Origin: Burkholderia cenocepacia
Lineage (GTDB): Bacteria; Pseudomonadota; Gammaproteobacteria; Burkholderiales; Burkholderiaceae
DNA length: 64,000 nucleotides
Direction of reading: 5' to 3'
Assembly (NCBI RefSeq): GCF_014211915.1
Contig: NZ_CP060042.1
Location: 1-64,000 of the forward strand
Shown: in pieces, positions 25,586-62,064 of the stretch
How the letters are laid out: each line of letters begins with the position of its first letter
How positions within the stretch are numbered: the first letter of the stretch is position 1
Notes under the pieces: model-generated
Database searches by the model: none
What the model was told of the DNA's origin: nothing
Seen by the model: only the letters and a program-made list of their open reading frames with translations
Program-made: the position numbers and the translations under genes

Positions 25586-25620
25586 ATCCGATAATCGATG
25601 CTCGAATTTGACGAACGACA

Positions 25621-27561
25621 ATGAGCGATAACACAAATCAAAGCGGCGGCAACTCGGACTTTAGCGACGACACCGAACAAGTGGTGCGACAGGTTGGTCG
25701 CACGGACAAGGACGGCGCGTCGGTCGGGCACTTCACGCTGACGCCGGCAAGCGACACGCGGCAAAAGGAACTGCTGTGCGACGTACGACCGATCATTCCG
25801 GTGATCTTCCTCCCGGGCGTGATGGGCTCGCCCTTGGTCAACAAGGACACCGGCGAAGATATTTTTTTTCCGCCGAACACGGACGGCATGCTCGGGAAAG
25901 CAGGCGCATTACCGGCTCTGCTCGGCATGTGGTTCAGGGGCGCGTCCACACGGGAAACGCTGTACGATCCGACCGTAGCCCAGGTGACCCCGTTTGGTCC
26001 CATCCGCGCCGGCAAGCTCCAAAAGGATGACAAGGAAGATCAGTATGTCGACGAGGCAGAGGCACGTCGACGCGGCTGGGGCTCGGTGTATCGATCGAGC
26101 TATCAACCGATGCTGGCGTGGCTCGAGGAGCAACTGAACGAGCCAAAGTATATGGGTAAGCACAAGGGGGCTTGGATCGAAACCGACCCCGACGGCACGG
26201 AGTGGACGCTCAAGCCCGTGCTCGGCACCGAGCCGGCCGACTACGGGGCGACCGACGCCGGCGCGCAAAAACGCGGCCAGGCGATCACGGAAGAGTGTGC
26301 CGAGTTCGAGCACTTCGCGAAATACCGGTACCGCGTGTATGCGATCGGCTACAACTGGCTGCAATCGAATGAGAAGTCGGCAAAAGACGTGATCGAAGGA
26401 TTGGACGTCGAGGACAAGAAAACCGGCAAGAAGATGCGCTTGATGGGCATCAAGGAGATCATCGCCGAAAACCATAGTGGCAAGGCAATCATCCTGACGC
26501 ACTCGATGGGCGGGCTAGTCGCGCGTATGGCAATTGCGATGCATGGCGCAGCGGGCCTAATGCACGGCGTTTTCCATAACGTACTGCCGGCGACCGGCGC
26601 ACCGATTGCAGCGAAGCGGTTCCGCACCGGAGGCGGCAGCGAGGGCGGGATAAACGGTTTCATCAATGGCGCCCTGCTCGGAAGTGATGCGGACGAGTTT
26701 GTGGCAGTGGCCGCGAACGCGCCGGGGCCGCTGGAATTGCTCCCGATGCCCGATTACCACAATGGCGATCCGTGGTGGATCTTTGCCCGGCTCGATGGCA
26801 CCCCGGTGATGAAGCTCCCGCAGCAGGGCGACGTATACAACGAGGTGTACATAAACCAAAAATGGTACGGCTTAGTACCGGAGCAATCGACTTCGTTGCT
26901 CGACCCGGCTGGCATCGTCCAAAAGCGACTCGATAACCAGCCAGTAAAAATGTCCCTTTCTGAGAACTTTGCGAAAACGATGCTTTTTGTAGTGCGCAAT
27001 CAGGAAAAAATAAAAGATACATACCACGATAAAACATACGTAGCATATGGGGATGGAGCACTGACACCCAAGGCATCAACCGCATCGAGTGAGGGGAACG
27101 CCAAACCCAAGATGGAGAAAAGCGAGAAGCTCGACGATCTGTTGGCATGGGGTACGGTGATCTGGAAAGGGAATATACCGCCCGACGTGACGGAGGAAGA
27201 ACTGCGCGCCGCGCGGTTCCTGGGCGAGAAACACGACGACTCCCACACCGGGACGCTGCGCGTACACCTGGACTCGCGCAATGTCACCATCGAATTCGAG
27301 GTGCAGAAGGTAGCGAAACTCCCTCCAGGCAGCGACGCGCCCGATCCACAAAAAAATGGCATCGTGCCGGGTGATGGAACTGTGCCGGTCTGGTCGGCCG
27401 AAGCCCCCGCGCACAGCGCGGAGGGTGGCGCGGCCCGCGGAATACAAATGGTCTTTGACCAAGGAGGCTATGTGCATCAGGACAGCTATAAACATCCATG
27501 GGCGCGCTGGGCGCTGCTCTACAGCATCGTGCAAATCGCGAAGGATGCACCGGCATGCTGA
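25621..27561 (+). CDS. T6SS lipase effector, alpha/beta hydrolase (Tle4-like)
   Basis: A 646-residue hydrolase with an LCAT-like entry (PVIFLPGVMGSPLVN, about residues 59-73) and a nucleophile elbow THSMGGLVAR. A candidate acid is in DGTVPVWS and a candidate His in GGYVHQDSYKHP near the C-terminus. It has no signal peptide, as expected for a cargo loaded on VgrG. It lies directly after vgrG (35 bases) and overlaps by seven bases the gene for a Tli4-like immunity lipoprotein. On this ground I place it with type VI phospholipase effectors of the Tle4 kind, which attack the membrane lipids of rival bacteria; the exact Tle class is not certain. Confidence 0.8.
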   Translation: MSDNTNQSGGNSDFSDDTEQVVRQVGRTDKDGASVGHFTLTPASDTRQKELLCDVRPIIPVIFLPGVMGSPLVNKDTGEDIFFPPNTDGMLGKAGALPALLGMWFRGASTRETLYDPTVAQVTPFGPIRAGKLQKDDKEDQYVDEAEARRRGWGSVYRSSYQPMLAWLEEQLNEPKYMGKHKGAWIETDPDGTEWTLKPVLGTEPADYGATDAGAQKRGQAITEECAEFEHFAKYRYRVYAIGYNWLQSNEKSAKDVIEGLDVEDKKTGKKMRLMGIKEIIAENHSGKAIILTHSMGGLVARMAIAMHGAAGLMHGVFHNVLPATGAPIAAKRFRTGGGSEGGINGFINGALLGSDADEFVAVAANAPGPLELLPMPDYHNGDPWWIFARLDGTPVMKLPQQGDVYNEVYINQKWYGLVPEQSTSLLDPAGIVQKRLDNQPVKMSLSENFAKTMLFVVRNQEKIKDTYHDKTYVAYGDGALTPKASTASSEGNAKPKMEKSEKLDDLLAWGTVIWKGNIPPDVTEEELRAARFLGEKHDDSHTGTLRVHLDSRNVTIEFEVQKVAKLPPGSDAPDPQKNGIVPGDGTVPVWSAEAPAHSAEGGAARGIQMVFDQGGYVHQDSYKHPWARWALLYSIVQIAKDAPAC

Positions 27562-28595
27562 CGCGTATTGGCCGACTCCTCGTTTTAGTGGCGGGCGTGT
27601 GCGCCTGTTCGATTACGTTTTCAGGTGAACCAACGATGACGAATCCCTTGCTGTCCAAGCCGCGCCCGTGGTGCATCGGGCGCTTCGTATTTGACCGGCC
27701 AGTGGCAAGCAAAATTACCAATCAACGATACGCATTTTGGGGGAACAAACTAGAGACGCAGCACAATGCATCTCCTGGCGAGTATCAAGCCAAAGTCGAC
27801 GCCGCGGAAAAAAAATACCGCACTGAAAGACGATTTGATCCTGCAAATCCAAGAAGTCAATCGAGCCCTGTCTGGCTTGAGAAAGCATTTTCTCCGACAA
27901 AGACTTCAAAGGTTTTCGCTTATCAAGAGGGAATCGCAAAGGCTGCGAAATTGCCCTTTGATACGGATGGTTATATTTACGAAAACAACACCTTGTTCCA
28001 TACAACTGGGTCATTTGGCTCAGGTGGCTTGGACAAGTTCGAGCCTGTGTATTCTGACCTCTATCGTCGCATCAAGACACGCGATAACTGGTCGGTCCCA
28101 ACCGAAACGGGATTCTGCTTCGACGGCGGAATCGCCACGGGGTCGTCAACCTACACCGAGGAGGTCAGCCAGTCGTTTGCACTGATGCCAGGGCGACCGG
28201 CGCTGCTGGTGATCCAGATGCGTGATGCCGTCGACGTCGACCAGAAGTCGCCACTGACAAAGACTCTTCCTGAGCTGCGCTCGAAGATGGATCGCATCTC
28301 GAGCGGCAGCTACCGCATTCTGCGACAAGGCAAGCGCACGGTGGCCGGGATGGATGCCGAGGAAGTGCTGTTCGCGCTGAAGGAAGGCGAGATTACGTCC
28401 TATCGCTTCTACCTGCTCGCGCCGGGCGATCCGAGCACAGTGGCGAAACCGCATACGGCTATTCAGTTGCTGCTCGGTGCGAGCAGCCCCGATTTGACGC
28501 CCGACGAGGCAACGTCACCGGTCGATGAAGCCGGCGCACTGCAAACGTGGGAGACGTTGCTGAACAGCCTACGTCTCCGACCAGGTGCAGTCTAA
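27555..28595 (+). CDS. Tli4-like T6SS immunity protein
   Basis: A 346-residue protein starting MLTRIGRLLVLVAGVCAC, a hydrophobic export signal with a Cys that may be a lipidation site, so it acts in the periplasm. The C-terminal half (GRPALLVIQMRDAVDVDQ, MDRISSGSYRILRQGKRTVAGMDAEEVLFALKEG, SYRFYLLAPGDPS) has the pattern of the Tle-cognate immunity 4 C-terminal domain. Overlap with the lipase gene (ATGCTGA) indicates translational coupling, typical of an effector and its antidote. It should bind and block the lipase. Confidence 0.8.
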   Translation: MLTRIGRLLVLVAGVCACSITFSGEPTMTNPLLSKPRPWCIGRFVFDRPVASKITNQRYAFWGNKLETQHNASPGEYQAKVDAAEKKYRTERRFDPANPRSQSSPVWLEKAFSPTKTSKVFAYQEGIAKAAKLPFDTDGYIYENNTLFHTTGSFGSGGLDKFEPVYSDLYRRIKTRDNWSVPTETGFCFDGGIATGSSTYTEEVSQSFALMPGRPALLVIQMRDAVDVDQKSPLTKTLPELRSKMDRISSGSYRILRQGKRTVAGMDAEEVLFALKEGEITSYRFYLLAPGDPSTVAKPHTAIQLLLGASSPDLTPDEATSPVDEAGALQTWETLLNSLRLRPGAV

Positions 28596-28606
28596 GCGGG
28601 CCCGCC

Positions 28607-28894
28607 ATGCGACGATACGACATAGTGAAAGGTGACACGACGACCCTCGGCGGTATCGTCCAAGGCGGCGATAGCGCCGATCTGATCGGCGGTCGCGAAC
28701 AGGCCTACGAGCGCGATCCGGTGTGGTGCCCTGTCTGCAAGACGTTGGGTAAAATCGAGTGCACCGGTCCGCGGATATCCACCACGGGGCCGGACGGACG
28801 AGAAGCAGCGTTGAGCGATGATCTGTGCGTGTGTCAGTGCCCGACACCGCCTCGCCTGGTCGCCTCGCAATCGGTCTCGTATATCGACGTTTGA
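28607..28894 (+). CDS. PAAR-domain spike tip protein
   Basis: A 95-residue protein of the PAAR type, which caps the VgrG trimer and sharpens the T6SS spike. It begins MRRYDIVKGDTTTLGGIVQGG, carries the Cys pair in WCPVCKTLGKI and ends with CVCQCPTPPRLVASQS, resembling the zinc-binding tip of PAAR proteins. It follows the immunity gene by 11 bases and closes the cargo module vgrG, effector, immunity, PAAR. Confidence 0.8.
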   Translation: MRRYDIVKGDTTTLGGIVQGGDSADLIGGREQAYERDPVWCPVCKTLGKIECTGPRISTTGPDGREAALSDDLCVCQCPTPPRLVASQSVSYIDV

Positions 28895-28920
28895 TCCAAC
28901 GCGGTTCACCACTGAAAGTC

Positions 28921-29253
28921 ATGGACGCCCCTACCCTGCCCGCCCTCCGCGCCGAACTCGACGCGCTGAATATCGAACTGGCCCGCGTCCGGGCGCAGGA
29001 AAAAAAGGCCGCGCTGGCCGCCTTCAAGGAACAGGTCACGCTGTACGACATTACCCAGCAGGAAGTGCTGTCGGCACTAGGCTATCTGCAGCCGAAGCGC
29101 CGCCGCGCGGCCGCCCAATTCTACGACCCGTCGTCGGGTCGCAGCTGGTCGGGGCGCGGCCCGCGGCCGAAGTGGCTCGTCGGCAAGAACCTTGACGACT
29201 ACCGGATCGACCGGGTACCGCAGCCTTGGTGGCCGGGCGAAGAAGCGGCGTGA
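28921..29253 (+). CDS. H-NS-like nucleoid-associated protein (second copy)
   Basis: A 110-residue protein with an N-terminal coiled coil (LRAELDALNIELARVRAQEKKAALAAFKEQV) and the DNA-binding motif YDPSSGRSWSGRGPRPKWLVGKNLDDYRI. It differs clearly in sequence from the family member at 1917-2219. The ATG at 28921 is preceded by the weak sequence GAAAGTC. It sits between the T6SS cargo and the defence-like block, where it may silence newly acquired AT-rich genes such as the toxin gene. Confidence 0.85.
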   Translation: MDAPTLPALRAELDALNIELARVRAQEKKAALAAFKEQVTLYDITQQEVLSALGYLQPKRRRAAAQFYDPSSGRSWSGRGPRPKWLVGKNLDDYRIDRVPQPWWPGEEAA

Positions 29254-29438: not shown

Positions 29439-32400
29439 TCAAACGGTCAGGGCTTCAGCAGGGTCCTCGGCCTGACGTGCCGGCTCGCTCGCTCGCCATA
29501 TCACATAGAGAGTGCTGACGCGTCCGCTTCCCTCCTCATACGCGCTGAACGCGTGCGGAATCTCCCGTGGTTGGTCCCGCCATGACGTCCCCGTCTCGCC
29601 CTCCTTCTGAGACCGATAGTACGGCACCGACCTCCCCTCGTATCGCTTACGAATGGCGCTACCGATGTCAGCACGGTTCGACATGAAGTCCTGTCCGCTG
29701 TGCGGCGGGAAGACGACACTCGCCAGACCGTGTTCACGAGCGAGATCAATCGCAAGATCGAAGTACGCATCCACTACCGAATTGGGTTCATGGCTGGCAA
29801 CCATCGATACAGTCGGGTTGATAGCACGAATAATCAGCGACGGACGCATCGAATCGATAGCGTCTACGATCTCCGAATACAGCAGCGCCATCCCGGCGAG
29901 CTGGCCGGTCATTGGATCGAAGACCACCAGATGCGCGTGACGAGTCTCAGCCCACATCGTCGTGTTGCCGCCGCTGCAGAGTCCCATCGCCTGTTTCGCG
30001 AAGAAGGCGGCTGGCCGCTTGGAGACAAAGGCATGGAGCGTCGACTGATGCGCTGCATCGCGCTGCGTCTTAAATTTCCGCTTCTCCCGCTCGCTCCAAC
30101 CACGGTAAACCTGCAAAACCTTCTGGCGTGTTCGCGCGAGCGCATTGACTAACATCGCATGGGCGTCCGCGTCCTCGCTCGTGCTCTTGTCCAGACGCAA
30201 CGAGAGATCGCGTGCCTCCGTCGCGCTCAACCTCGAGACGAATTGTTCCTGTCCGGCATCGAGCGCGTCCGGTAGGACGATTCGGAAGAAGTCATGCAAT
30301 TCACCGATTTCGCGATGAGCGACCGCGCTTTCGTCATCGAGATCGGACATCGCCTCTAGCCGCCGCGTCACCCATTCTTTAACCTGCTCATCGGCGGCGG
30401 CGGCGGCAAGCAGGACGCCGAGATGACGATGCAGCATGTGCTGGTCGGCAAGCGGATTGGCTAACAGGCTGCCGCGAAGGTGCTTGGCCGCGTCAAACAC
30501 ACTGATGTCCGCTTCGGAGAATCGGCGCGCAAACCGGGCGGCAACGGCGAGCGCTGCCAATCCAGCGTGGTCGAGCGGCCGGCTGACGCGAAACGTGTTG
30601 CGCTGCCAACGCATCAGGTAAGGCTCGTCGCGATACCACCGCTGCCATGGGGTGTCGTCGACGCGTACGCGGGTCCAATACTCCTGAACCGAGGTGGCCG
30701 CCACGCCATACGTCAAGGCGATCGCTTCCGCTTCCAGGTCCGAGAGCACCGGACCGGTTGGCCCTCTTCCACGCGCTGTCTCTGCGATCAGCGGCCGGAA
30801 GACCGACAGCAGCGCCGACATTGACGACTCCGCCTGCGACGTGGTTTCCAGCAAGCTGCGCAGCAGCACGCCATGCGTTGCGTTCAGCATGACAGGCAGA
30901 AACGGCTTGAGTGCCTCCCGTTCACGGAACTCAGCCTGGCGACGCGCTTTGTGATACGCCTCCCAACTTTCGTCGGTACGGTCGACGGGCGACGCGATGA
31001 GTGGGCGAACGCGAGCAGAAACGACGTCCGCGAGACATTTTCGATTTCCCTCTAGGACCGCGAAATTCCTGCGTCGAAAGGCATCTTCGATCAGGACACG
31101 CTCCGCGTCGTCGAGGATCCGCGGACCAGCATAATCTTTTACGCCCCAAGCGTCGGCATAAAACCAGTCGTACAGTGCCCGAATATCGGTCAAACCTTGC
31201 TCCTCGACCACATAGCGCAGCAACGCGGGACCTATGTCCATCGCGAATAGCCGTTGATTCAATGCGTCAAGAGTCTTTGCCGGCATCCGCTCGGCGAGGT
31301 ATTCCAACGATTCAACGTTCCCGCGGCGATGCGCGCGCACCGCCCAATTTGCCACCTCCGCTGCCGCGCCCCGGTTATTCAACGGTCCAACCACGGTCAG
31401 CAATTTGTCCAGAGACCAGCAAGAAACGACGGGATAGGCTGAATGAAAGGCGGCAATCGAAGCGCGATCGTCGTAACCATGTCGGGCGATGACGTCGAGG
31501 TACTGTTTGAGGAGTTCATCGCGACCATGCAAGACGTAGTTCTGGTTGTGCGCGATATCAGCCGGAGTCAGCCCGGCGCCCACCAGACAATCGAGATGCG
31601 CGACGGACGCCGTGTTGGACTTCGCGACCTGTACCAGAAACTCTCGCGCGTCGACCAGATCATCGAGCGAGGCACCGTGCGCGCGCATCCAGGTCACCAC
31701 TTCGACGGGTGCTGCATGCGTGAGATCTAGCAACGTTCGGAAGCGCTGGATGTCGTCAGCGGTCCGCGCGCCGATTGTGTCGAGGATGAAATGCCAATGG
31801 TCAATTTCGGTATCCCAAAGCCGACGTCCAACTGCATCAAAGAGGCCCGCGACATCGACAAGGCCACGGGCGTGACACAATGACAGGACGAACGATAGTC
31901 GAACCGCGTTGAAGCTGTAGGGGTGGTTGAGGATCTCGGGGATTCGCGACTTCGGCATACCTGCCGACTTCAACACGCGCGCCATCTCGCGCAGATCACC
32001 GACGTCGATTTTCAGGGTGGTGTCGGAGTAGTACGAGTTGCGGGTGGGCAGCCAACGGAGGTCGCCCAGTCGTTCAAGGATGCCCTCGTCGATCAAAGCG
32101 TGAACCACGTCTTGCTCATATGTTCGACGGACGGCGTGCCACGTGTCGGGAATGGCGGTGACATCGTTCAGACCAAGCCGCATCAGCACATCGATGTCGG
32201 TGCGCTCCAACCCGAGCAGGCCGTCGTAAGCCGACGCACGGCGGGCGAGAGGCAATGCACGTAAGGTGCGATCGATGCCACTGGAGTAGGACGACCGGAT
32301 CGGCCACACCGGTGCGACGTGGCGTTCGAATACATACGCGCGGCCCAAATACGAGCGTATGCGCCTAAGCAGCGCCCGACCAGCCAGCAGTCGCACACGG

Positions 32401-32756
32401 GTCGGGATGTACGGCGTGACTAGCCCCGACAGCAGAATCAACCACAAGGGTCGCGCCATGGGTACATAAGCCGGGATCCCCAACGCCTTGCGCATCATGG
32501 GCATATGTTCCGGGTTCGGCTTCCAGCGCAATTCAAACACGATTTTATCGCGGAGTGCCTCGAGGCCGTGGCGCGCCTGGCGCCATGGGTGTAGCGGTCT
32601 TTCGTCCTCATCGTTTTCATACCAGAACGACGTTGACCGATCGGCGGCGGCGGCCTTACTGCTGATCGCGCTCAGTTGCTCTGCCCGCCATACGCGATAC
32701 GCGTGTTGGAACGCCAGCTTCTGCTGACGAGAGGGTCGTCGGATCGGCCACGTCAT
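29439..32756 (-). CDS. Large protein of unknown function (1,105 residues)
   Basis: A single long frame of good coding quality. No family is recognised with confidence. Residues up to about 300 are basic and rich in Arg and Trp with a hydrophobic patch (LWLILLSGLVTPYIP); the middle is helical with repeated Leu/Ala-rich segments; the last ~170 residues (FFAKQAMGLCSGGNTTMWAETRHAHLVVFDPMTGQLAGMALLY, IIRAINPTVSMV, AREHGLASVVFPP) resemble a GNAT-like acetyltransferase fold, though without a certain acetyl-CoA loop. It starts 88 bases from, and divergent to, a HEPN-motif protein, suggesting a joint system with a shared promoter region. Confidence 0.7.
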   Translation of the reverse strand: MTWPIRRPSRQQKLAFQHAYRVWRAEQLSAISSKAAAADRSTSFWYENDEDERPLHPWRQARHGLEALRDKIVFELRWKPNPEHMPMMRKALGIPAYVPMARPLWLILLSGLVTPYIPTRVRLLAGRALLRRIRSYLGRAYVFERHVAPVWPIRSSYSSGIDRTLRALPLARRASAYDGLLGLERTDIDVLMRLGLNDVTAIPDTWHAVRRTYEQDVVHALIDEGILERLGDLRWLPTRNSYYSDTTLKIDVGDLREMARVLKSAGMPKSRIPEILNHPYSFNAVRLSFVLSLCHARGLVDVAGLFDAVGRRLWDTEIDHWHFILDTIGARTADDIQRFRTLLDLTHAAPVEVVTWMRAHGASLDDLVDAREFLVQVAKSNTASVAHLDCLVGAGLTPADIAHNQNYVLHGRDELLKQYLDVIARHGYDDRASIAAFHSAYPVVSCWSLDKLLTVVGPLNNRGAAAEVANWAVRAHRRGNVESLEYLAERMPAKTLDALNQRLFAMDIGPALLRYVVEEQGLTDIRALYDWFYADAWGVKDYAGPRILDDAERVLIEDAFRRRNFAVLEGNRKCLADVVSARVRPLIASPVDRTDESWEAYHKARRQAEFREREALKPFLPVMLNATHGVLLRSLLETTSQAESSMSALLSVFRPLIAETARGRGPTGPVLSDLEAEAIALTYGVAATSVQEYWTRVRVDDTPWQRWYRDEPYLMRWQRNTFRVSRPLDHAGLAALAVAARFARRFSEADISVFDAAKHLRGSLLANPLADQHMLHRHLGVLLAAAAADEQVKEWVTRRLEAMSDLDDESAVAHREIGELHDFFRIVLPDALDAGQEQFVSRLSATEARDLSLRLDKSTSEDADAHAMLVNALARTRQKVLQVYRGWSEREKRKFKTQRDAAHQSTLHAFVSKRPAAFFAKQAMGLCSGGNTTMWAETRHAHLVVFDPMTGQLAGMALLYSEIVDAIDSMRPSLIIRAINPTVSMVASHEPNSVVDAYFDLAIDLAREHGLASVVFPPHSGQDFMSNRADIGSAIRKRYEGRSVPYYRSQKEGETGTSWRDQPREIPHAFSAYEEGSGRVSTLYVIWRASEPARQAEDPAEALTV

Positions 32757-32844
32757 TTCACACGTCCAATGATGAGGAAAAGTCTAAAGAATAGCGTGGA
32801 TACGGCGACACCTATGCGCCGGAAATTCCGCACGCCGCGTGGTG

Positions 32845-33894
32845 ATGACCTTCGTGGCCGGCCTTCCAGCTCAGACGTTAAGATATTGGTTTCTCGATCG
32901 AGGCTTGCCATCAGCGGAGGCCGTGGACGTGCGTACGATGACACAACAGGTTGCATGCGCCAGGGCGCGCGGTCTCGCTGCCCAATTCGGCTACTATCCA
33001 GTGCGCTGCGACATCCAGAACGGTCGCTTCTCGGTGGAAACGCTCCCCGATCTTGACAGTCGCGTCGCAGACGTAGCCGAGAACGAAAACGTCCACAGCG
33101 GTTGGATCTATGCGGGCGCAGAGCAGGTTCGGGATTTCATGACAGGCAACGTCACCGTGATGCCATACAGCGCGCGCGTCTTCCCGTTACCGAAGACCCA
33201 TGTGCTCACAATTAAAAAATGTGAGAGTCGCGATCACCTCGAGTTAGTCGTCTGGTGTCTATCGTTTTTCATCGGCATGCGACTGACCACAACAGAGGCA
33301 GGCTTCCTCGACGCAACGCCTGTCGAGCCAGGCAAACTCGTCGACTTTTCTCTGGGTCGATACACCGTCGAGGACGTCATCGTGATTGCGCTGAATTTCT
33401 TGGACGCTTATCGAAAGACGCCGCCCGCATACAAGATCCTCCCAGCAGTCATACATGCACTGTTCTTGGCACAGTATCCGCAGAGTCTGGACTTCGAACG
33501 ATTTCAGTATCTCTACATGGCCCTGGACGCGTGCTACAAGCTGATGACAGTCAACGATACCCCGCCATCCCGTTCTGGTCACGCTGCGCGTATCCAGTGG
33601 ATGTGCGAGAAATTTACTGTTCCCGTACCCGAATGGGCCAAAGTCGAAAAAAAGTCGTCGCCACTATCGATCGTCCGCAACGACGCCATCCACGAAGGGC
33701 TCTTCTTCAATGTCCCGTTGGGATTCGCGATTTACGGCGGCGGCGTTCCCAACGCTTATAGAGGCAACGTGCCACTGGAAATGCGGGCACTTGTTTGTCG
33801 GCTGCTGGTCGGCGTTCTTGTCGGGCCATCGCTTCAGTACGTCAGCACCCCAGTCGATACCCGACAGCGGTACGCGCTCGACCGGCCCGCGTAA
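32845..33894 (+). CDS. HEPN-motif protein, candidate RNase
   Basis: A 349-residue protein of unknown family. Near the C-terminus is the motif R278-N-D-A-I-H283 (SIVRNDAIHEGLFF), the Rx4-6H signature with a polar residue after Arg that marks HEPN ribonucleases; the preceding helices (FERFQYLYMALDACYKLM, HAARIQWMCEKF) fit a HEPN bundle. The N-terminal ~200 residues are unlike anything I recognise and may be a sensor. GTG codons at 32839 and 32842 precede the ATG at 32845. It is divergent to the 1,105-residue protein. A role in abortive defence is an inference from motif and neighbours. Confidence 0.6.
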   Translation: MTFVAGLPAQTLRYWFLDRGLPSAEAVDVRTMTQQVACARARGLAAQFGYYPVRCDIQNGRFSVETLPDLDSRVADVAENENVHSGWIYAGAEQVRDFMTGNVTVMPYSARVFPLPKTHVLTIKKCESRDHLELVVWCLSFFIGMRLTTTEAGFLDATPVEPGKLVDFSLGRYTVEDVIVIALNFLDAYRKTPPAYKILPAVIHALFLAQYPQSLDFERFQYLYMALDACYKLMTVNDTPPSRSGHAARIQWMCEKFTVPVPEWAKVEKKSSPLSIVRNDAIHEGLFFNVPLGFAIYGGGVPNAYRGNVPLEMRALVCRLLVGVLVGPSLQYVSTPVDTRQRYALDRPA

Positions 33895-33977
33895 GGGGCG
33901 CAACATTACAGCAGCGCAGCAACCGAATCCCATCCGCCTCAACCTGCGAGATCAATCTCGCTCCCCCGATTGCATCA

Positions 33978-34778
33978 CTATAGGGAACCCAGACGCGCGG
34001 GGATCTCGTCGTCGGGATAGAGGTGCATCGCCGTCACAACGCCGGCCACTCCTTCGAGATCGGGAAACAGCACGGCGCGGCTGACGCCGGCGATCTTGAG
34101 CTCCGTGCGCATTCGCCCGAACGCACGCGCCGGGATCCTCACGTAGTGCAGTCGGTCCTTATACGCCTGATTCGAGTCGAGCGAGACGAAACTGATCCCC
34201 GCGTCGTTGGCGTGAGCCCGATGCAGACTGAACCATCCATCCTGTGCCGCAATCCGACGGGACACGTGCCGCGGCTTGAGAAGCGGCGTACGCTCAACCG
34301 AGAGAGCATCTGCCCGCTCGTAATCACGGATCAGATCCTGTCCGGTGTAGCGCAGGATCCAGACTGCGGCGTCCGGGGCGCGTCGGCGCCCCTTCGATGG
34401 CGCCGCGGGCTGATGAATCGCGAACCAGAGCGCGGCAAGCGCACTCCCGCTCCAGTCGAGCAAGCGGGTCGGCATATTGTGATGTTGCGCGATCGCCAGC
34501 CAATCCGCATCGCCGAGATCGACGGTCGATTCGAGATGCGGTATCGCCCGTTCTTTGAACTCCCGCAACATCGCCTGCTCGGTGTCCGCCCACACGCGCG
34601 GGTGTCGCGCGATGCTCGGCTTCAGCACCCACTGCTCCTCGCGCTGACCTCGGAACAGGAACTTCGTACCGCCGTCAACGTGCCGGTTAATCGCCTGAAG
34701 GTAACTCGCAAGACTGCTGACGGTCGCGATGTGCTGTTCGGCGCGGCCGGTGAGGGAATAATCGTTCGGTTGTCGCAT
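33978..34778 (-). CDS. FRG-domain protein
   Basis: A 266-residue protein with the FRG domain: KFLFRGQREEQWVLKPSIAR near residues 38-57, then LAIAQHHNMPTRLLDWSGSALAALWFAIHQP and AAVWILRYT. FRG domains occur in bacterial toxins and phage-defence loci; their activity is not firmly known. It is the last gene of a same-strand run that starts at the recombinase gene (37832-39688), eight bases after a small gene, and most likely is co-transcribed. Confidence 0.85.
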   Translation of the reverse strand: MRQPNDYSLTGRAEQHIATVSSLASYLQAINRHVDGGTKFLFRGQREEQWVLKPSIARHPRVWADTEQAMLREFKERAIPHLESTVDLGDADWLAIAQHHNMPTRLLDWSGSALAALWFAIHQPAAPSKGRRRAPDAAVWILRYTGQDLIRDYERADALSVERTPLLKPRHVSRRIAAQDGWFSLHRAHANDAGISFVSLDSNQAYKDRLHYVRIPARAFGRMRTELKIAGVSRAVLFPDLEGVAGVVTAMHLYPDDEIPARLGSL

Positions 34779-34785
34779 AGCGCCC

Positions 34786-35034
34786 TCATGCAGCTGGCGT
34801 CAGCTTCGCGTATGCGATCTTTTCGAGGCGGAAACGATCCGCGCGTGCTTCGGCGGACTGCGATGCCCCCTGATTGTCAACGAGCGCCTCCCACAGCGCG
34901 AATGCGCCACGGGCCTCCCCCACCGCGAGCCCCAGACCATAGCTGCCGAATTCGCAACTGGCGGCACGCTGCATCGCGTCTTGGATCTCGCGCTCGGCGC
35001 GTTTGGTGATCTGTTCGTAGGTCAGGCTGTTCAT
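34786..35034 (-). CDS. Small protein, paralogue of the gene at 40123-40371
   Basis: An 82-residue acidic protein (LTYEQITKRAEREIQDAMQ...ARGAFALWEALVDNQGAS). It shares length, order and the core pattern ARGAFxLWxxxVxxQG with the 82-residue product at 40123-40371, so both belong to one family. No known function. A GAGGGA sequence precedes the ATG. It lies seven bases upstream of the FRG-domain gene and is probably translated with it. Confidence 0.65.
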   Translation of the reverse strand: MNSLTYEQITKRAEREIQDAMQRAASCEFGSYGLGLAVGEARGAFALWEALVDNQGASQSAEARADRFRLEKIAYAKLTPAA

Positions 35035-35203
35035 GTGTGGTCCCTCGGGTGATTGTATAGGTCGTGTTGTGCCACGGCCCCGGCATGGGTGTCCGGGGTT
35101 CCCTCCGCTGCGTATCGTCTCGTGCGGACGCTTCGCACTGGAACCCGACGATCGCGAGCAATTTCACATGCAGCGCGTCGACACGCTCGCTTCGATGCGA
35201 ATT

Positions 35204-36148
35204 TTATAGGCCGCCTTGATGCTCCGGCTCATGGACATCGAGGATTGAGGGTGACACGATCGCGGCGCGTAAGACAAATGCGGTGAGCTCGCGCGCCCGC
35301 TCGGCATCGATCGTCCCCGCAGCACCTTGATGGGAGAGTTCGGATCGGGCGTCATACAGCGTAGCGGCCAACTTCGCCTTCTCAGCGGCGTCTGGTCGGG
35401 ATTGTCCTGCCTGATCAGCCGCACGAATCACCAGCGCGCGGAGCGCCGCTTTATGGGATACCCGCTTGAGGTTCCCCAATGCCCCTACGATACCCGGATC
35501 ACCCAGATCATTCGCCTCTCGAATCTTCTCCTCGATCCATCGGACAACGTTCTCGTCTCGCTTTGCCTGCGTTGACAGGGAATCGAGGATCGTCATGTAC
35601 GTCAAGAACTTCGTCCGCGGCAGATTCTCGTAACTTGCCACCATCCATAGTTCCAAGGCAGCCAACAACCGCTCGTCGGAAACGGGCGGGCACTGATTGA
35701 GCCCTTCCAATAAGCCGGCGGAATAGCGGACCGTTCCATACCCGCCAGCCCACAGCGGAGAGGAAATCTGATCGGCAGGAACCAGTGTGATCTCGGGCCC
35801 GTTAAAGATCGCTCGCCCTACCGCAGACGTCTGTGCTTTTTGCGGCTCGGAAGCCGGAATGCTCAGAACAACATTCCCAACGGCGCCCGCAAATACCGAG
35901 AAGGCTGGGATTCGCGCACGAAGGGTTTCTATGAGGCGCTGAGCGTCTGACTCGTTCATCGCGTCGAACAACAGCCAGTGGGTCCACTCTCTGGCCATAT
36001 CGGTCGGTTCGCCGATGGCAGGAGCCGCAAACAAAGTCGCGCGATGTCCGAATAGCGTCACGGAAGCACCGGCGGCCTGCGAAAAGTCGCCGCCGCGCAT
36101 CTCAAACGGCACATGTAGCCGGAATTGTTCTTGTTCAATGGTGGTCAT
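35204..36148 (-). CDS. ApeA-like HEPN protein
   Basis: A 314-residue protein. The C-terminal region reads KLAATLYDARSELSHQGAAG, with R268 and H273 forming the HEPN Rx4-6H motif in the YDxRSxxxH form typical of ApeA-like HEPN domains; a helical segment with FLTYMTILDSLSTQ lies before it. The N-terminal ~150 residues look beta-rich. A good ribosome binding site (AAGGAAAAC) precedes the ATG. ApeA-type HEPN proteins cleave RNA in phage defence (established for the named family); assignment here rests on motif only. It follows the DUF4238-like gene closely. Confidence 0.65.
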   Translation of the reverse strand: MTTIEQEQFRLHVPFEMRGGDFSQAAGASVTLFGHRATLFAAPAIGEPTDMAREWTHWLLFDAMNESDAQRLIETLRARIPAFSVFAGAVGNVVLSIPASEPQKAQTSAVGRAIFNGPEITLVPADQISSPLWAGGYGTVRYSAGLLEGLNQCPPVSDERLLAALELWMVASYENLPRTKFLTYMTILDSLSTQAKRDENVVRWIEEKIREANDLGDPGIVGALGNLKRVSHKAALRALVIRAADQAGQSRPDAAEKAKLAATLYDARSELSHQGAAGTIDAERARELTAFVLRAAIVSPSILDVHEPEHQGGL

Positions 36149-36160
36149 GTTTTCCTTCGA

Positions 36161-37027
36161 TCACGTTGCGTCGGCTGCGGCCACGCAGTCGTCAGGAAAG
36201 AGATTGACGCTGAACCGCGGTTGCATTCGCGAATGCATATATTGACGTCCGCTATAGGCAACGAAGCAACGGGTCCAATCATGCGCGATGACGAATCGAC
36301 GGCTGTGCACCAACGCTGTCAGATTGATGATCTTCATCACGTTCGGCCGTGCAACGTCGATGTCCGACGCACCGAGTAAGGCCAGAGTCGGCGTCAGGGG
36401 AATATAGAAATTCGCTGGCGTATCGGGCACCAGAAATTCCCCCGCGTCCGGGCTCGCGTGGCACAAGCGCCACTCCAACGCACCCTGCTCCCTCATGGCC
36501 ATCATGATCCCATGTTCAATATGAAGCCCAGTGGCCTGACGACTCGGTATCGAATTCTCTTCGTCAATGTAGAGCGTATGCCAGGCCTCCAGGCGCTCCT
36601 TAAAATCCCAGGTCAGATCTGGAGTGCCGCGGCCGGCATTGAACTTGACTGCAGGTTCGGGACTATCAGCGTATCTTGCTCGCCCTTGCCAGAGTGCGTA
36701 GAACCGCGTGATCAGCCGGTGATTCAAACTCAGCCACCGCGTGTCGCCCTTTATCAGCCGCTCGGCGAGCGACTGAAAATCACCTTCGATGCTTGCACCA
36801 AAGCCCCCTTCGGCCCGCTGATCCCACACGTGGTTGGCACAAAAGAGCTTGTTCCCGGCATCGACGTTGTAGATGACCTTCTTCGCAGCAAGACTGAGCG
36901 CCGACAAACCCGTGTTCGGATTGCGGAACCGCTCAATGCTTGCTCGCGGGAAAATGTGCTGGTTTCGCGTGAGCTGGTGCGGATTTCCCGGTTGAACCGG
37001 CTCGGGCTTATGCTTGGTCTGTTCCAT
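36161..37027 (-). CDS. DUF4238-like protein
   Basis: A 288-residue protein. It has an N-terminal RNQHIFPRASIERFRNPNTGL segment and a later FLVPDTPANFYIPLTPTLALLG segment, in the order seen in DUF4238 proteins (a HYVPxFYLRxF start and a TSDNPV-like middle), a family often found in defence islands. Activity unknown. Twelve bases separate its stop from the HEPN gene start, so the two are probably co-transcribed and may act together. No clear ribosome binding site precedes the ATG at 37027. Confidence 0.6.
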   Translation of the reverse strand: MEQTKHKPEPVQPGNPHQLTRNQHIFPRASIERFRNPNTGLSALSLAAKKVIYNVDAGNKLFCANHVWDQRAEGGFGASIEGDFQSLAERLIKGDTRWLSLNHRLITRFYALWQGRARYADSPEPAVKFNAGRGTPDLTWDFKERLEAWHTLYIDEENSIPSRQATGLHIEHGIMMAMREQGALEWRLCHASPDAGEFLVPDTPANFYIPLTPTLALLGASDIDVARPNVMKIINLTALVHSRRFVIAHDWTRCFVAYSGRQYMHSRMQPRFSVNLFPDDCVAAADAT

Positions 37028-37142
37028 GGGTAATCGATGAACGTGTGTACAGCCAGGTTTGGCGCATCGGCCTGGCGTGACTGCAAAGTCGCGCGACGTG
37101 TCGGAGAGCCCCCTTAGTAGGCTGTCGAGGTCCTCGCCTCAA

Positions 37143-37835
37143 TCAAGGCTGGGGACGGAGAATCAGCATTGGCCTGTGTCGCCGCTCGTCGTGGCAGATC
37201 GTTACTCGCTCGAGCGGCTCAGCGATTGTCCAGCCAGACATGCCGGCCGCAAGCACGGTGAGTCGCACGGTGTGGGCGTCACAGTCGTGGATTCGCGCTT
37301 CGATCTGGGAGCGCGCGCCGGGCGCATGCGTCGGATTGTCGAAGCGTCGGCCGATTGCTTCGACGGTGATCGGCTGATCTCTCATCCGCAGGATCGCTCC
37401 GGCCTTCTCGTTGCGACTCGCGATAAGCTTGTCGAATTGCTCCGCAGACGCCTTAACCGACTCTGAGCCGACTCGAACGTATGCCGGCCCGGTGAAATGT
37501 GGCCGCCCGTCGCTCGAGCTGACGACGACCGCCACGACCGTCTTTTCATCGATCGTAAATGCATGGGACTCGTAGCTACGGATGGGTGGGTAGCAGTCGT
37601 TGGCAGCCTCTCGCACGCGCTTCTGGACGCTATCGGAGTTAGCTACGCCCGTGATCATGCCGCCTTTGTCAGCGACACCAATGAAAAGAATGCCGACGCG
37701 GCCTGACTGAATGGTGTTGGCAAAGGCACTCAGCGTCTGTCGCAATTCGTCTCCCTTTACGCCTTCCGATTTACGCTCTACCAGCTGATCTTCATGGTCG
37801 CCGAGGCGTTGCCGCAGTTCGTCATCGGTCATCAT
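37143..37835 (-). CDS. Schlafen AlbA_2-domain protein
   Basis: A 230-residue protein. The N-terminal half shows the AlbA_2/Schlafen pattern: EDQLVERKSEGVKGDELRQTLSAFANTIQSGRVGILFIGVADKGGMITGV, with Glu and Lys residues in VERKS and the Asn in AFANT. Schlafen-type domains bind or cut RNA or act as regulators, and occur in anti-phage loci. The C-terminal ~90 residues are unfamiliar. Its start overlaps the stop of the recombinase gene (ATGATGA, with GGAGGACGTCG in front), so it is coupled to the recombinase and is the first gene of the defence-like run. Confidence 0.75.
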   Translation of the reverse strand: MMTDDELRQRLGDHEDQLVERKSEGVKGDELRQTLSAFANTIQSGRVGILFIGVADKGGMITGVANSDSVQKRVREAANDCYPPIRSYESHAFTIDEKTVVAVVVSSSDGRPHFTGPAYVRVGSESVKASAEQFDKLIASRNEKAGAILRMRDQPITVEAIGRRFDNPTHAPGARSQIEARIHDCDAHTVRLTVLAAGMSGWTIAEPLERVTICHDERRHRPMLILRPQP

Positions 37836-39688
37836 CGACGTCCTCCGTTGTCACGAGCCAAACGTGCATGATATTTCGCTGCCTCGCGACGCATTCGGGC
37901 CTCTTCCGGCGACACGTAGATCGACGTCGTGCCGAGCGACGCGTGGCCGAGCGTGCGCTGTACGACCTCGAGCGCGACACCGGCGGCCAGCATCTGCGTG
38001 CCGACCGTGTGCCGGAACGCATGGGGTGAGGTGCTGGCCAGCTTACGCCGCTGCGATTCAGTCAGGTCCGGCATCACGTCGAGCAGCTGCGCGACCGCCC
38101 ATTTCGTGAGCCCGCGCGCGCCACGCACCGAGTATCCCCCTCCGGATACGCCGCTTGCGCCCTCTTCCTCATTGTCGACAGATTCCCCGAATTTCTCTCG
38201 CGCCCGCGGCGTCGGCGGGATGACCAGCGGCGCCACCAGCGGCAGGTCCGGCACCTTCGCCGCGGCTGCCGCGTCGAAATCCTCACCGCGATCGCGCCAA
38301 TGCCCGCGGAGGGCGTCGACACATTCGTCGCTGATCGGCACGTAGCGTTGCTTGTTGCCCTTGCCAATCACCTCGAGCAACCAACTGGCCGGCGTGTCGT
38401 CCTCCGCCGGCATCCAGACGAGTGCCCCTCGCGTCGCCGCGGCCGCCTCGGCGATCCGCAGGCCGCCATCCCCCATGAGCAACAGCAGCGCCCGCGCGGC
38501 GCGCCAGCGCGGCCCACTCGGGCCCTGCAACTCGCTCCGTTCGGCCAGTGTTGCGCGCACGCGCGTCCAGAGCTCGAGCGGTAGCGCCCGCTCGACCTGC
38601 AGCTTGCGCACGCGCCTGACCACACTCGGATCCGAGACCGCCTCCCAAGGATTTCCGGCCAGGTACCGGACTGCCACCAGCCATGTGAAGGCTGCGCGGA
38701 TCGTGCGCACCGCGTAGCGTTGGCTTTCCGGTGACAGGCCGCCCGGCGCGAACGGCCGCCACTGGCGGCTCGTGCGCGCGACCGGCGGTCCGGTAAAGCG
38801 TTCGCCCGGCGCAGCGAGAAACGCCTTGTACGCTTCGCAATCCTCGACCCGCATTGACGACAGCGCGACGCCGCGTTCCGCCACGCACCACAGCACGAGG
38901 CGCTCGAGCTCCTTCTTGTAGACCCGTTGCGTCGCGGGCCGATCGTCGTATCGGTGCAGGTACGCGCGTATCGCATCCAGATCGTGCAAAGCGCCCAAAT
39001 ACGCGAACACGGGTGCCCGGTTGGCACCGTGGGCGCCGGACAGCTCGACCGGAAGTGTCAGGCGCTCGAGCGGGGCCAGCTGCCCGGCGCCGGCGGTGAC
39101 GCTTGTAGCCGTCGGCGCGAGCGCGTCGCCGGCGTCGACGCCGACCTCGACGGCCGCGCCGATCGACGACGCGTGACGCCGCAACCAGGCGGCCAGCACG
39201 CGGGCGCGACCGACGCCGATACGGGGCACCGATCGCCACCACTGGCCGCCGCGGCGGTTCACGAACGCGACGAGGTCGCCGAGCGTGCGGATCCCCTCGC
39301 CTTCCAGGCGCGCGGCGATGAGCGGCCGGAACCAGCGGCCTACTGGGTGATCGCACTGCGGCAGCGCTATCGCCCACTGCCCGGCCACCTGCTCGATCAG
39401 CTGCAGCGACACGGGCGTCAGGCGCGGCTCGCCGTATTTCTCGATCGCCGCCTGCAGGTGGGATTTCAATACGGGCGAACCATCGCGCAGCGCGGCCGCG
39501 ACCAGGTCGTCGCGCATCGTGCGCAGCAACTGCGCGACGTCGACCGGCTCGTCCGCATCGCGGTCGAAGTACAGCCGCTCGATCGTCTCGATCGGCAGGC
39601 CTTTCACGCGCGCGCGCAGCGCCGTGAATTCGGTACGGCTGTAGCTGCGCAACGGCATCTGGGCCAGTTGCTGGGGGCGGTTCGCCAT
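37832..39688 (-). CDS. Tyrosine recombinase with N-terminal DUF3701-like region
   Basis: A 618-residue integrase-type protein. The first ~200 residues are a DUF3701-like extension (QMPLRSYSRTEFTALRARVKGLP ... GIRTLGDLVAFVNRRGGQWWRSVPRIGVGRARVLAAWL, a helix-hairpin-like segment). A SAM-like core-binding domain follows (TQRVYKKELERLVLWCV). The catalytic domain has GDGGLRIAEAAAATRG with the first Arg, then HAFRHTVGTQMLAAGVALEVVQRTLGHASLGTTSIYV with HxxR, His and the nucleophile Tyr. It heads the run of defence-like genes and has a relative at 62009-63700; the two could resolve plasmid multimers or move the DNA between them. Confidence 0.88.
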   Translation of the reverse strand: MANRPQQLAQMPLRSYSRTEFTALRARVKGLPIETIERLYFDRDADEPVDVAQLLRTMRDDLVAAALRDGSPVLKSHLQAAIEKYGEPRLTPVSLQLIEQVAGQWAIALPQCDHPVGRWFRPLIAARLEGEGIRTLGDLVAFVNRRGGQWWRSVPRIGVGRARVLAAWLRRHASSIGAAVEVGVDAGDALAPTATSVTAGAGQLAPLERLTLPVELSGAHGANRAPVFAYLGALHDLDAIRAYLHRYDDRPATQRVYKKELERLVLWCVAERGVALSSMRVEDCEAYKAFLAAPGERFTGPPVARTSRQWRPFAPGGLSPESQRYAVRTIRAAFTWLVAVRYLAGNPWEAVSDPSVVRRVRKLQVERALPLELWTRVRATLAERSELQGPSGPRWRAARALLLLMGDGGLRIAEAAAATRGALVWMPAEDDTPASWLLEVIGKGNKQRYVPISDECVDALRGHWRDRGEDFDAAAAAKVPDLPLVAPLVIPPTPRAREKFGESVDNEEEGASGVSGGGYSVRGARGLTKWAVAQLLDVMPDLTESQRRKLASTSPHAFRHTVGTQMLAAGVALEVVQRTLGHASLGTTSIYVSPEEARMRREAAKYHARLARDNGGRR

Positions 39689-39691
39689 GGT

Positions 39692-40120
39692 TCAGCCCGC
39701 AGGAATGGGGGATACGACCGTGTCGGCCGTGGTGACGCGCTGTAGCCGCTCGAACGCGGCGACATAGCGATGCATCGGTACCGCGGCCAGCTGCGCGTCC
39801 AGCCGCGCGAGCACATGCTCTACCGCGGCGCGCTCGAGGTCGGTCAGCGAGCCCGACTCGCCACGCTCGGCGCGGTCGGCGCAGTCGTGGAGCACCGCCT
39901 CGGCCCGTCGATAGGGTGCCGCCTCGTTCGGGTCGAGGAAGTACGCGAGGTAGATCGCATTCAAGAGCGTGGCCAGCTGCGTGACGTCGTCGCTCGCGTT
40001 GCGCAGTGCAGCCAGCGCAACGTGGTGCGTCAGCTGGATCCGACGCAGTTCGGCGGCCGGGATCGGCAGCAGCTGCGCCCGAGTGAGCGGCCGGCGGTTA
40101 CGGGAGGTGGCTTTTCGCAT
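39692..40120 (-). CDS. Conserved plasmid protein, unknown function
   Basis: A 142-residue protein (MRKATSRNRRPLTRAQLLPIPAAELRRIQLTHHVALAALR ... AAVEHVLARLDAQLAAVPMHRYVAAFERL). It is mostly helical. Similar small proteins with a basic N-terminus and a VPMHRY motif recur on Burkholderia mobile elements, to my knowledge without assigned role. The start is the ATG at 40120; a TTG two codons upstream is less likely. It ends three bases before the recombinase start, and both run on the minus strand. Confidence 0.65.
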   Translation of the reverse strand: MRKATSRNRRPLTRAQLLPIPAAELRRIQLTHHVALAALRNASDDVTQLATLLNAIYLAYFLDPNEAAPYRRAEAVLHDCADRAERGESGSLTDLERAAVEHVLARLDAQLAAVPMHRYVAAFERLQRVTTADTVVSPIPAG

Positions 40121-40122
40121 GA

Positions 40123-40371
40123 TCAAGATGGGTGGGAAAGGGAAGCGTCGACCACGGCGGCCAGGCGCACCACATCCGCCTCATAGGTCGGCCGCTCGCC
40201 CGCCGCAAATCCCTGCCGGGCGACCTCGCGCCACAGGTTGAACGCGCCCCGCGCAATGGTTCGCGCGACGTCTGGCGCGACTGCCGCATTTCCATACACC
40301 GGATTCGACAATGCGCGGTAGTCGCGAATCTGCCACTCGGCGAGTTCCGTGAACTGTAGATACGACATCAT
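40123..40371 (-). CDS. Small protein, paralogue of the gene at 34786-35034
   Basis: An 82-residue protein (MMSYLQFTELAEWQIRDYRA ... ARTIARGAFNLWREVARQGFAAGE). It shares its length and the ARGAFxLWxxxxxQG core with the product at 34786-35034. Function unknown. It overlaps neither neighbour but is packed tightly between them on the same strand. Confidence 0.65.
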   Translation of the reverse strand: MMSYLQFTELAEWQIRDYRALSNPVYGNAAVAPDVARTIARGAFNLWREVARQGFAAGERPTYEADVVRLAAVVDASLSHPS

Positions 40372-61282: not shown

Positions 61283-62064
61283 TTAAGCGACGTCGTGCCG
61301 ATTAGGCGAGCTGCGTCGACTGTTCGGCCAGTAGTGCACGGTAAGGCGCGGACCTCGCGTCACGCGAAATCCAGCCGGCACTACCTGGCCCGAGAGGTGC
61401 AGCGTGAACTCACCGCGGGGGGCGATGCGCGCAGCGAGACGAATCTCCTCGTGCCACGCTTCGTTGTAGTCGTCCGGGATCCGCGTCCGCCCCCGAAGGC
61501 GTGCCACATCACCAGCACCATGCCGCTGAAGCCGATCGCGGTCCAAGCAAGGCCGTCGACCACAGCACGCAGTTCGGTTTCGCTGGCGTTCAGGATTTGA
61601 TGCGCGAGATGCGCGAACCCGGCCGGATTGGTTGCCCATGACAGGCCCGCGAAGGCGAAGATCGCGAGCGGTATGCACAGTGCGGTGTACGCGAGCTGGC
61701 ACAGCACGGCGCCGGCATAGCTGAGGATCGACGCGACACGCAGATCCCATTGCCGCTCCTGCGCGAGTTCGTGCTCGATGCGACGGACGACGTGCTCGGG
61801 CACTTCAGCCGCCGGCACATCATTGAGCCGTAACTCCCAAACAGTGGCCTCGGTTATCGTCACGGAGGGTCGGTCAACCGCCTGCTGCCGGCGCCATCGA
61901 TTTGTCGCTTTGAGAGGGTCGGCCGGGATTCGTGAAATTTTCGCCAAAATTGCCTTATCCAACTGATCTATAAGGGGAATTTCGCCCCTCGATCGAGTCG
62001 GCCGTACGCTAGACTTTGCGTGCCTCAAATGCCTGATCGAACTGCCGCGCCCGCCGGATCTCAT
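61283..62064 (-). pseudogene. Membrane protein gene with a frameshift
   Basis: The first frame encodes a soluble segment (LIDQLDKAILAKISRIPADPLKATNRWRRQQAVDRPSVTITEATVWELRLNDVPAAEVPEHVVRRIEHELAQERQWD) and three hydrophobic stretches (ILSYAGAVLCQLAYTALCIPLAIFAFAGLSW, AHQILNASETELRAVVDGLAWTAIGFSGMVLVMWHAF). In the G-run at about 61490-61494 one G seems lost; the next frame continues RTRIPDDYNEAWHEEIRLAARIAPRGEFTLHLSGQVVPAGFRVTRGPRLTVHYWPNS to a stop at 61283, a coherent ending. The true start is uncertain: ATG 62064 would overlap the recombinase gene; TTG 61962 would not. Function unknown. Confidence 0.55.

What the first reader, a model, noticed from the sequence alone, without database searches (positions are those of the whole stretch)
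29439..37835. Candidate undescribed defence island coupled to a recombinase
From the recombinase gene leftward, with short gaps or overlaps, come a Schlafen/AlbA_2-like gene (overlapping ATGATGA), a DUF4238-like gene, a HEPN gene (RSELSH), a small gene and an FRG-domain gene, all on one strand. Beyond them lie a divergent HEPN-motif gene (RNDAIH) and a 1,105-residue unknown. AlbA_2, HEPN, FRG and DUF4238 are all recurrent in anti-phage loci. The combination, led by a DUF3701-type recombinase, matches no named system I know.
Basis: partly seen in the sequence, partly recalled or inferred. Interest (0 to 1): 0.8.

Follow-up and report, generated by a model that had tools for sequence, protein, structure and literature searches.

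The report
Mix-and-match defence genes beside plasmid recombinase
This stretch of a Burkholderia plasmid is probably not one new immune system but a swap zone next to a DNA-recombining gene, where separate virus-defence-type genes are exchanged between plasmids and even the tail end of the recombining gene gets replaced.

Summary
Family models confirm the DUF3701 recombinase, AlbA_2, DUF4238 and FRG genes; motif conservation and a fold comparison support the first HEPN. The second 'HEPN' rests on a motif that 71% of shuffles contain.

The single-system reading fails. Relatives carry separable blocks with sharp edges: recombinase+[HEPN-small-FRG], +[AlbA_2-DUF4238], +[DUF4238], +[ApeA]. Only NC_008545.1 carries both the HEPN and AlbA_2 genes. 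DUF4238 is a known one-gene anti-T7 system.

The recombinase link is real: FRG lies beside DUF3701 recombinases, intact or decayed, in 6 of 7 plasmid records examined, one only 63% identical.

Most unusual: 26 recombinases end in 24 different C-terminal tails; homology usually stops within 30 nt of one codon, and two inter-block junctions keep recombinase 3'-end remnants. Cargo may insert into the recombinase's own 3' end. Against this: no synonymous-site conservation there, a third junction without remnant, and homologous exchange as a workable alternative.

The parts
37832..39688 (-). DUF3701 tyrosine recombinase; anchor of the swap zone
   Evidence: Pfam DUF3701 1.1e-25, Phage_integrase 4.6e-16; 241 plasmid records at E<=1e-60
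37832..37875 (-). variable 3' end of the recombinase gene: where homology to other plasmids stops
37143..37835 (-). AlbA_2 (Schlafen-type) gene, block 1
   Evidence: Pfam 2.4e-16; absent from L003 and L051
37040..37085 (-). worn remnant of a recombinase 3' end between AlbA_2 and DUF4238 (compared by eye with L051 and L045)
36161..37027 (-). DUF4238 gene, block 2
   Evidence: Pfam 29.4 bits, cut-off 27; directly after the recombinase in L051
36173..36178 (.). junction DUF4238 | HEPN block, no recombinase remnant
35204..36148 (-). HEPN-type protein with N-terminal beta-rich domain, block 3
   Evidence: conserved RSxLSH, model and VIA-align matches to HEPN
34786..35034 (-). small 82-aa gene, block 3; relatives precede FRG or Abi_C-type genes
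33978..34778 (-). FRG gene, block 3 (PADLOC candidate PDC-S15)
   Evidence: Pfam 9.4e-24, PADLOC 4.3e-83, LFRGQ motif invariant in 8 compared
32839..33894 (+). unknown gene with RNDAIH; HEPN unproven
29439..32756 (-). 1,105-aa helical protein with GNAT-like C-terminal region; separate block

Best explanation
A modular cargo hot spot on Burkholderia plasmids, anchored to a DUF3701 tyrosine recombinase. The cargo is a set of independent abortive-infection-type genes: AlbA_2; DUF4238; a HEPN-small-FRG block; and, farther on, an unrelated 1,105-aa gene. Blocks are gained, lost and exchanged at the recombinase's 3' end, so that each block brings its own last codons of the recombinase gene. Shown by sequence comparison: gene content, block structure, recombinase link, tail replacement. 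Inferred: how blocks move (homologous exchange through the shared recombinase, helped by IS elements, or site-specific insertion), that HEPN cuts RNA and FRG consumes NAD+ on infection, that the small protein controls the effector gene behind it, and any anti-phage effect.
For: Block-wise sharing with recurrent edges. AlbA_2 more alike between window and L004 at fourfold sites (104/120) than the recombinase (273/369, Fisher p 0.0039) or DUF4238 (84/124, p 0.00045). Different cargo behind related recombinases: HEPN-small-FRG, AlbA_2-DUF4238, DUF4238, ApeA-like (PDC-S58 4.4e-89), DUF3800. FRG-recombinase proximity in 6 of 7 plasmid records examined plus genome G057. DUF4238 known as a single-gene defence; Frg described as an ART-superfamily putative NADase effector.
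Against: No phage test exists here. PADLOC matches are not enriched after the recombinase: at least 3 of 38 ORFs after it against 2-5 of 38 before it (member overlap not resolved). Most genes right after the recombinase in relatives have no known family. FRG relatives also sit on chromosomes without a recombinase (L139, L140) and beside respiratory genes (L137).
Confidence: 0.6

Rival explanations
1. Self-targeted cassette array: the recombinase itself inserts circular cassettes into a site in the last codons of its own gene. Each insertion swaps its C-terminal tail and pushes the old 3' end to the far side of the new cassette, integron-like.
For: 24 different tails in 26 recombinases; in 56 pairs at least 83% identical over the last 300 nt the likeliest break is 0-12 nt after the HA codon in 40 and 13-30 nt in 11. 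L051 and L052 are 94.7% identical up to the site and unrelated after it. A displaced recombinase 3' end lies behind the ApeA block in L045 and, worn, behind AlbA_2 in window and L004, and is the live end in L051.
Against: Synonymous sites at the 3' end are less conserved (0.53-0.56) than the gene mean (0.65), unlike a bound DNA site. Junction 36176 and the L047/L048 insertion carry no remnant. Other recombinase fragments start elsewhere in the gene. Only two remnant junctions, and pairs are not independent.
Confidence: 0.28
2. The genes are plasmid-stabilising toxin-antitoxin modules beside a resolvase, as in Tn3-family transposons, with no main role against phage.
For: Tn3 toxin-antitoxin pairs mostly lie directly upstream of the resolvase gene (PMC7157771, passages); FRG lies directly upstream of the recombinase in L134 and G057; a small gene precedes FRG or Abi_C-type genes. 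DUF3701 recombinases fall with TnpR of Tn4401 (PMC8138268, passages).
Against: DUF4238 alone blocks T7; no known antitoxin family matches the small gene. The two roles are not exclusive.
Confidence: 0.25
3. One multi-gene defence system.
For: Shared strand and a 4-nt overlap.
Against: Only NC_008545.1 has both the HEPN and AlbA_2 genes; blocks occur apart.
Confidence: 0.05

Closest known systems
Defence hot spots of P2-like phages and P4-like satellites (PMC9122126; start of abstract and one passage seen)
   Same: Interchangeable defence genes at a fixed place in a mobile element; includes a DUF4238 gene
   Different: Here on plasmids and next to, partly inside, a recombinase gene whose tail changes with the cargo
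Toxin-antitoxin pairs beside resolvases of Tn3-family transposons (PMC7157771; passages seen)
   Same: Small-gene/effector modules next to a resolvase-type recombinase
   Different: No transposase annotated in the 24-kb stretch; effectors are mostly downstream and of other families
Integrons with gene cassettes
   Same: Variable cassettes next to a tyrosine recombinase
   Different: Integron-integrase model scores 31.7 bits against a cut-off of 265; blocks of several genes; attC not searched for
Gamma-Mobile-Trio islands (recalled; only papers that mention them were listed)
   Same: Tyrosine recombinase with defence cargo
   Different: GmtY model 25.1 bits against a cut-off of 340
Phage Mx8, attP inside its integrase gene (recalled; not found in the listing)
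   Same: Attachment site within the recombinase gene, so that integration changes its C-terminus
   Different: A phage integrating once; here repeated replacement by cargo blocks is proposed, not shown

Membership tests
PADLOC candidate PDC-S15 (FRG) | FRG domain and PDC-S15 profile | tested here: met
   Pfam 84.6 bits, cut-off 25; PADLOC E 4.3e-83
PADLOC candidate PDC-S15 (FRG) | anti-phage or NADase activity | not testable with these tools
   needs the bench
DUF4238 single-gene defence | DUF4238 domain | tested here: met
   29.4 bits, cut-off 27
DUF4238 single-gene defence | protection against T7 | not testable with these tools
   published for another member
HEPN (gene 35204-36148) | HEPN fold with conserved R-x4-H | tested here: met
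   moderate Z for a helical domain, no Pfam match
HEPN (gene 32839-33894) | HEPN fold with conserved R-x4-H | tested here: inconclusive
   motif expected by chance; fold not predicted
ApeA (gene 35204-36148) | ApeA_NTD1 and HEPN_Apea domains | tested here: not met
   no Pfam match; profile comparison with the L045 ApeA-like protein found nothing
Integron | integron-type integrase | tested here: not met
   TIGR02249 31.7 bits, cut-off 265
Integron | attC sites | not tested
   no attC search was run
Tn3-family transposon | DUF3701/TnpR-subgroup recombinase | tested here: met
   grouping from PMC8138268
Tn3-family transposon | Tn3 transposase beside it | tested here: not met
   none among the 29 annotated features of the 24-kb stretch; terminal repeats not searched
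Gamma-Mobile-Trio | GmtY recombinase | tested here: not met
   25.1 bits, cut-off 340

The most novel reading that the evidence does not exclude
A self-targeting cassette system: a DUF3701 plasmid recombinase uses the last codons of its own gene as the insertion site for defence cassettes, so every acquisition rewrites the recombinase's C-terminal tail (perhaps tuning or locking the enzyme) and leaves the previous tail as a scar ahead of the older cassette: an integron-like archive of defence genes of a different design.
Probability: 0.28. Interest if true: 0.82.

Novelty: new variant of a known kind. Interest (0 to 1): 0.5.

Why it matters
It offers a marker gene for finding plasmid defence cargo (241 plasmid records carry the recombinase at E<=1e-60), with many neighbouring genes of unknown function as candidates. 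If the recombinase acts on its own 3' end, that would be a new way to build gene-cassette arrays and would tie cassette acquisition to a change in the enzyme itself. The small 82-aa gene that directly precedes FRG in three plasmids and Abi_C-type genes in three others suggests a control partner shared by unrelated effectors.

Tried and rejected
Single-system reading: rejected on block structure. DUF4238 search in genome contigs: 10 stretches matched a pattern, none confirmed. Remnant scan of the recombinase 3'-end core in the fetched loci (L001, L002 and L008-L037 left out): one clean inter-block remnant, in L005 and L045 (the same plasmid type). Genus-wide pattern search with up to one mismatch: 27 places in 19 of 65 genomes, against 5 for the reversed control pattern; of the 18 places looked at some are normal gene ends, some fragments that start elsewhere in the gene or carry internal deletions, some chance matches, so they do not support one fixed site. 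L056/L057 looked like a fresh cassette but is an insertion sequence with inverted ends. Wobble-site conservation as a test for an att site came out negative at the 3' end; the peak at codons 46-51 is probably codon usage. PADLOC enrichment after the recombinase was not found once ORFs before it served as control; both 38-protein sets were hand-picked from annotated loci, and the first left out the window's own recombinase-side genes (AlbA_2, DUF4238, HEPN, small, FRG). Foldseek gave nothing at E<=0.001 for either model. Promoter- and terminator-like sites: no more than in shuffles. Profile comparison of the HEPN family with the ApeA-like protein: nothing. Literature: 'DUF3701'+'integrase' 1 paper; six terms on integrase/phage defense/cargo/attachment site/Burkholderia/plasmid 0 papers; two of 'FRG domain', HEPN, 'tyrosine recombinase' 8 papers, none of whose listings describes this. 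I claim absence from print no further than these.

Full report

MODULARITY. Relatives match the window in blocks. L003 (CP011920), its unnamed twin L049 and, broken by insertion sequences, L005 (CP072607) share 33975-36178 (HEPN-small-FRG) and recombinase sequence; L003 and L049 lack AlbA_2 and DUF4238. L004 (CP073707) shares 36176-39694 (recombinase, AlbA_2, DUF4238) but not HEPN-FRG. L051 (genome G043) has DUF4238 directly after the recombinase. L007 (B. arboris) matches the 1,105-aa gene (29464-32868) without the FRG, HEPN, DUF4238 or AlbA_2 genes. Of 7 plasmid records with the HEPN gene and 6 with AlbA_2, NC_008545.1 is the only one in both. At fourfold sites the AlbA_2 gene of window and L004 is more alike (104/120) than the recombinase (273/369) or DUF4238 (84/124) on either side, so the blocks differ in history.

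THE RECOMBINASE END. I compared 26 recombinases (known duplicates left out). They are alike up to AK(Y/F)HA near the C-terminus and then end in 24 different tails. In the 56 pairs at least 83% identical over the last 300 nt, the likeliest breakpoint lies 0-12 nt past the HA codon in 40, 13-30 nt in 11, before it in 2, and beyond 150 nt in 3 pairs that share cargo. The pairs are not independent; the breaks at +28 involve L056, where the comparison with L057 shows an insertion sequence. In L045 the ApeA block is followed by a displaced recombinase 3' end in front of a DUF4238 gene; in window and L004 a worn copy of the same 3' end, matched by eye, lies between AlbA_2 and DUF4238; in L051 that 3' end is the live end of the recombinase. 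DUF4238 thus has three different left neighbours joined within about 15 nt. This fits insertion into the recombinase's own 3' end. Against it: synonymous sites there are less conserved (0.53-0.56) than the gene mean (0.65); the junction at 36176 has no remnant; the L047/L048 insertion has none; other fragments of the gene start elsewhere. Homologous exchange anchored in the shared recombinase is the more cautious account.

CARGO. After the recombinase in relatives lie an ApeA-like gene (L045: PDC-S58 E 4.4e-89; ApeA_NTD1 and HEPN_Apea in the set), a DUF2971 gene two places on (L004: PDC-S31), a DUF3800 gene (L040), and many genes without a family. One further protein of the set matches SLFN_AlbA_2 (member not named). 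PADLOC matched at least 3 of 38 ORFs after the recombinase and 2-5 of 38 before it, among them AbiJ in 2. So defence-type genes lie on both sides.

FRG AND ITS COMPANIONS. I examined 7 of the 15 plasmid records with an FRG relative at E<=1e-30. DUF3701 recombinases lie near FRG in 6: intact in window, L003 and L134 (B. glumae, FRG 4 bp before a 63%-identical recombinase); as fragments in L005, L135 (B. ubonensis, about 1.2 kb away) and L136 (B. cepacia, right after FRG); none in L137. Genome G057 has Abi_C - FRG - recombinase - ApeA_NTD1 fragment. Two chromosomal FRG genes, L139 and L140, have no recombinase in 10-11 kb. Within 1.5 kb before FRG lie HEPN+small (window), Abi_C (G057, L135), a YhcG-type nuclease (L114 = the L136 plasmid type, L116) or PIN (L115); L134's neighbour has no family. 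Relatives of the small gene occur in 7 plasmid records at E<=1e-8: right before FRG in 3, right before an Abi_C-type gene in 3 (L047, L048; L042's has no Pfam match but is 51% identical to L047's), and in B. anthina inside a longer predicted ORF.

MECHANISM. Shown: gene content, block structure, tail replacement, recombinase link. From passages of published work: DUF4238 as a single protein protects against T7 (PMC9122126); Frg belongs to the ART superfamily and might act as an NADase (PMC9503650); DUF3701 recombinases fall with TnpR of Tn4401 (PMC8138268); Tn3 toxin-antitoxin pairs mostly lie just upstream of the resolvase (PMC7157771). Inferred: HEPN cuts RNA and FRG depletes NAD+ in infected cells; the small gene controls the effector behind it; the recombinase resolves or rearranges the plasmid and may move the cargo. 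Recalled: that Abi_C belongs with HEPN folds, that ApeA is an anti-phage HEPN protein, and the Mx8 and Gamma-Mobile-Trio comparisons.

VERDICT. Not an undescribed single system, but a real recombinase-anchored swap zone of defence-type genes with an unusual edge inside the recombinase gene. New variant of a known kind; interest 0.5.

Noticed in passing
window 34786-35034; L042:9862-10110, L047:9743-9979, L048:10495-10740: A small 82-aa gene family directly precedes FRG in 3 plasmids and Abi_C-type genes in 3 others (gaps -1 to 10 nt). Candidate shared control partner of unrelated effectors.
   Followed up: partly
window 40123-40371: A second 82-aa small ORF upstream of the recombinase, 38% identical to the one before FRG.
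   Followed up: partly
window 29439-32756: The 1,105-aa protein looks like helical repeats with a GNAT-like C-terminal region; low-confidence model.
   Followed up: partly
L065 (genome G057, contig C183): Abi_C - FRG - recombinase - truncated ApeA_NTD1 gene, with an AAA_21 ATPase gene beyond: a second, 63%-identical recombinase lineage with related cargo.
   Followed up: partly
recombinase codons 46-60 (5' part of window 37832-39688): Synonymous identity of 0.85-0.91 against a gene mean of 0.65 at LLRTMRDD; probably codon usage, but a DNA element inside the gene is not excluded.
   Followed up: partly
L083 (G047), L087 (G061): Two recombinase 3'-end fragments of about 100 nt start at nearly the same point of the gene, away from any intact recombinase in the fetched stretch.
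   Followed up: no
window about 23045-29253: Type VI secretion genes beside the region: VgrG, an alpha/beta hydrolase, a Tli4-type immunity protein and PAAR (annotation of the matching record).
   Followed up: no
window 62039-63397: Another tyrosine recombinase relative, 37% identical, on the same plasmid.
   Followed up: no
L137: A 44%-identical FRG gene follows cytochrome ubiquinol oxidase genes in B. multivorans, a setting that does not look like defence.
   Followed up: no
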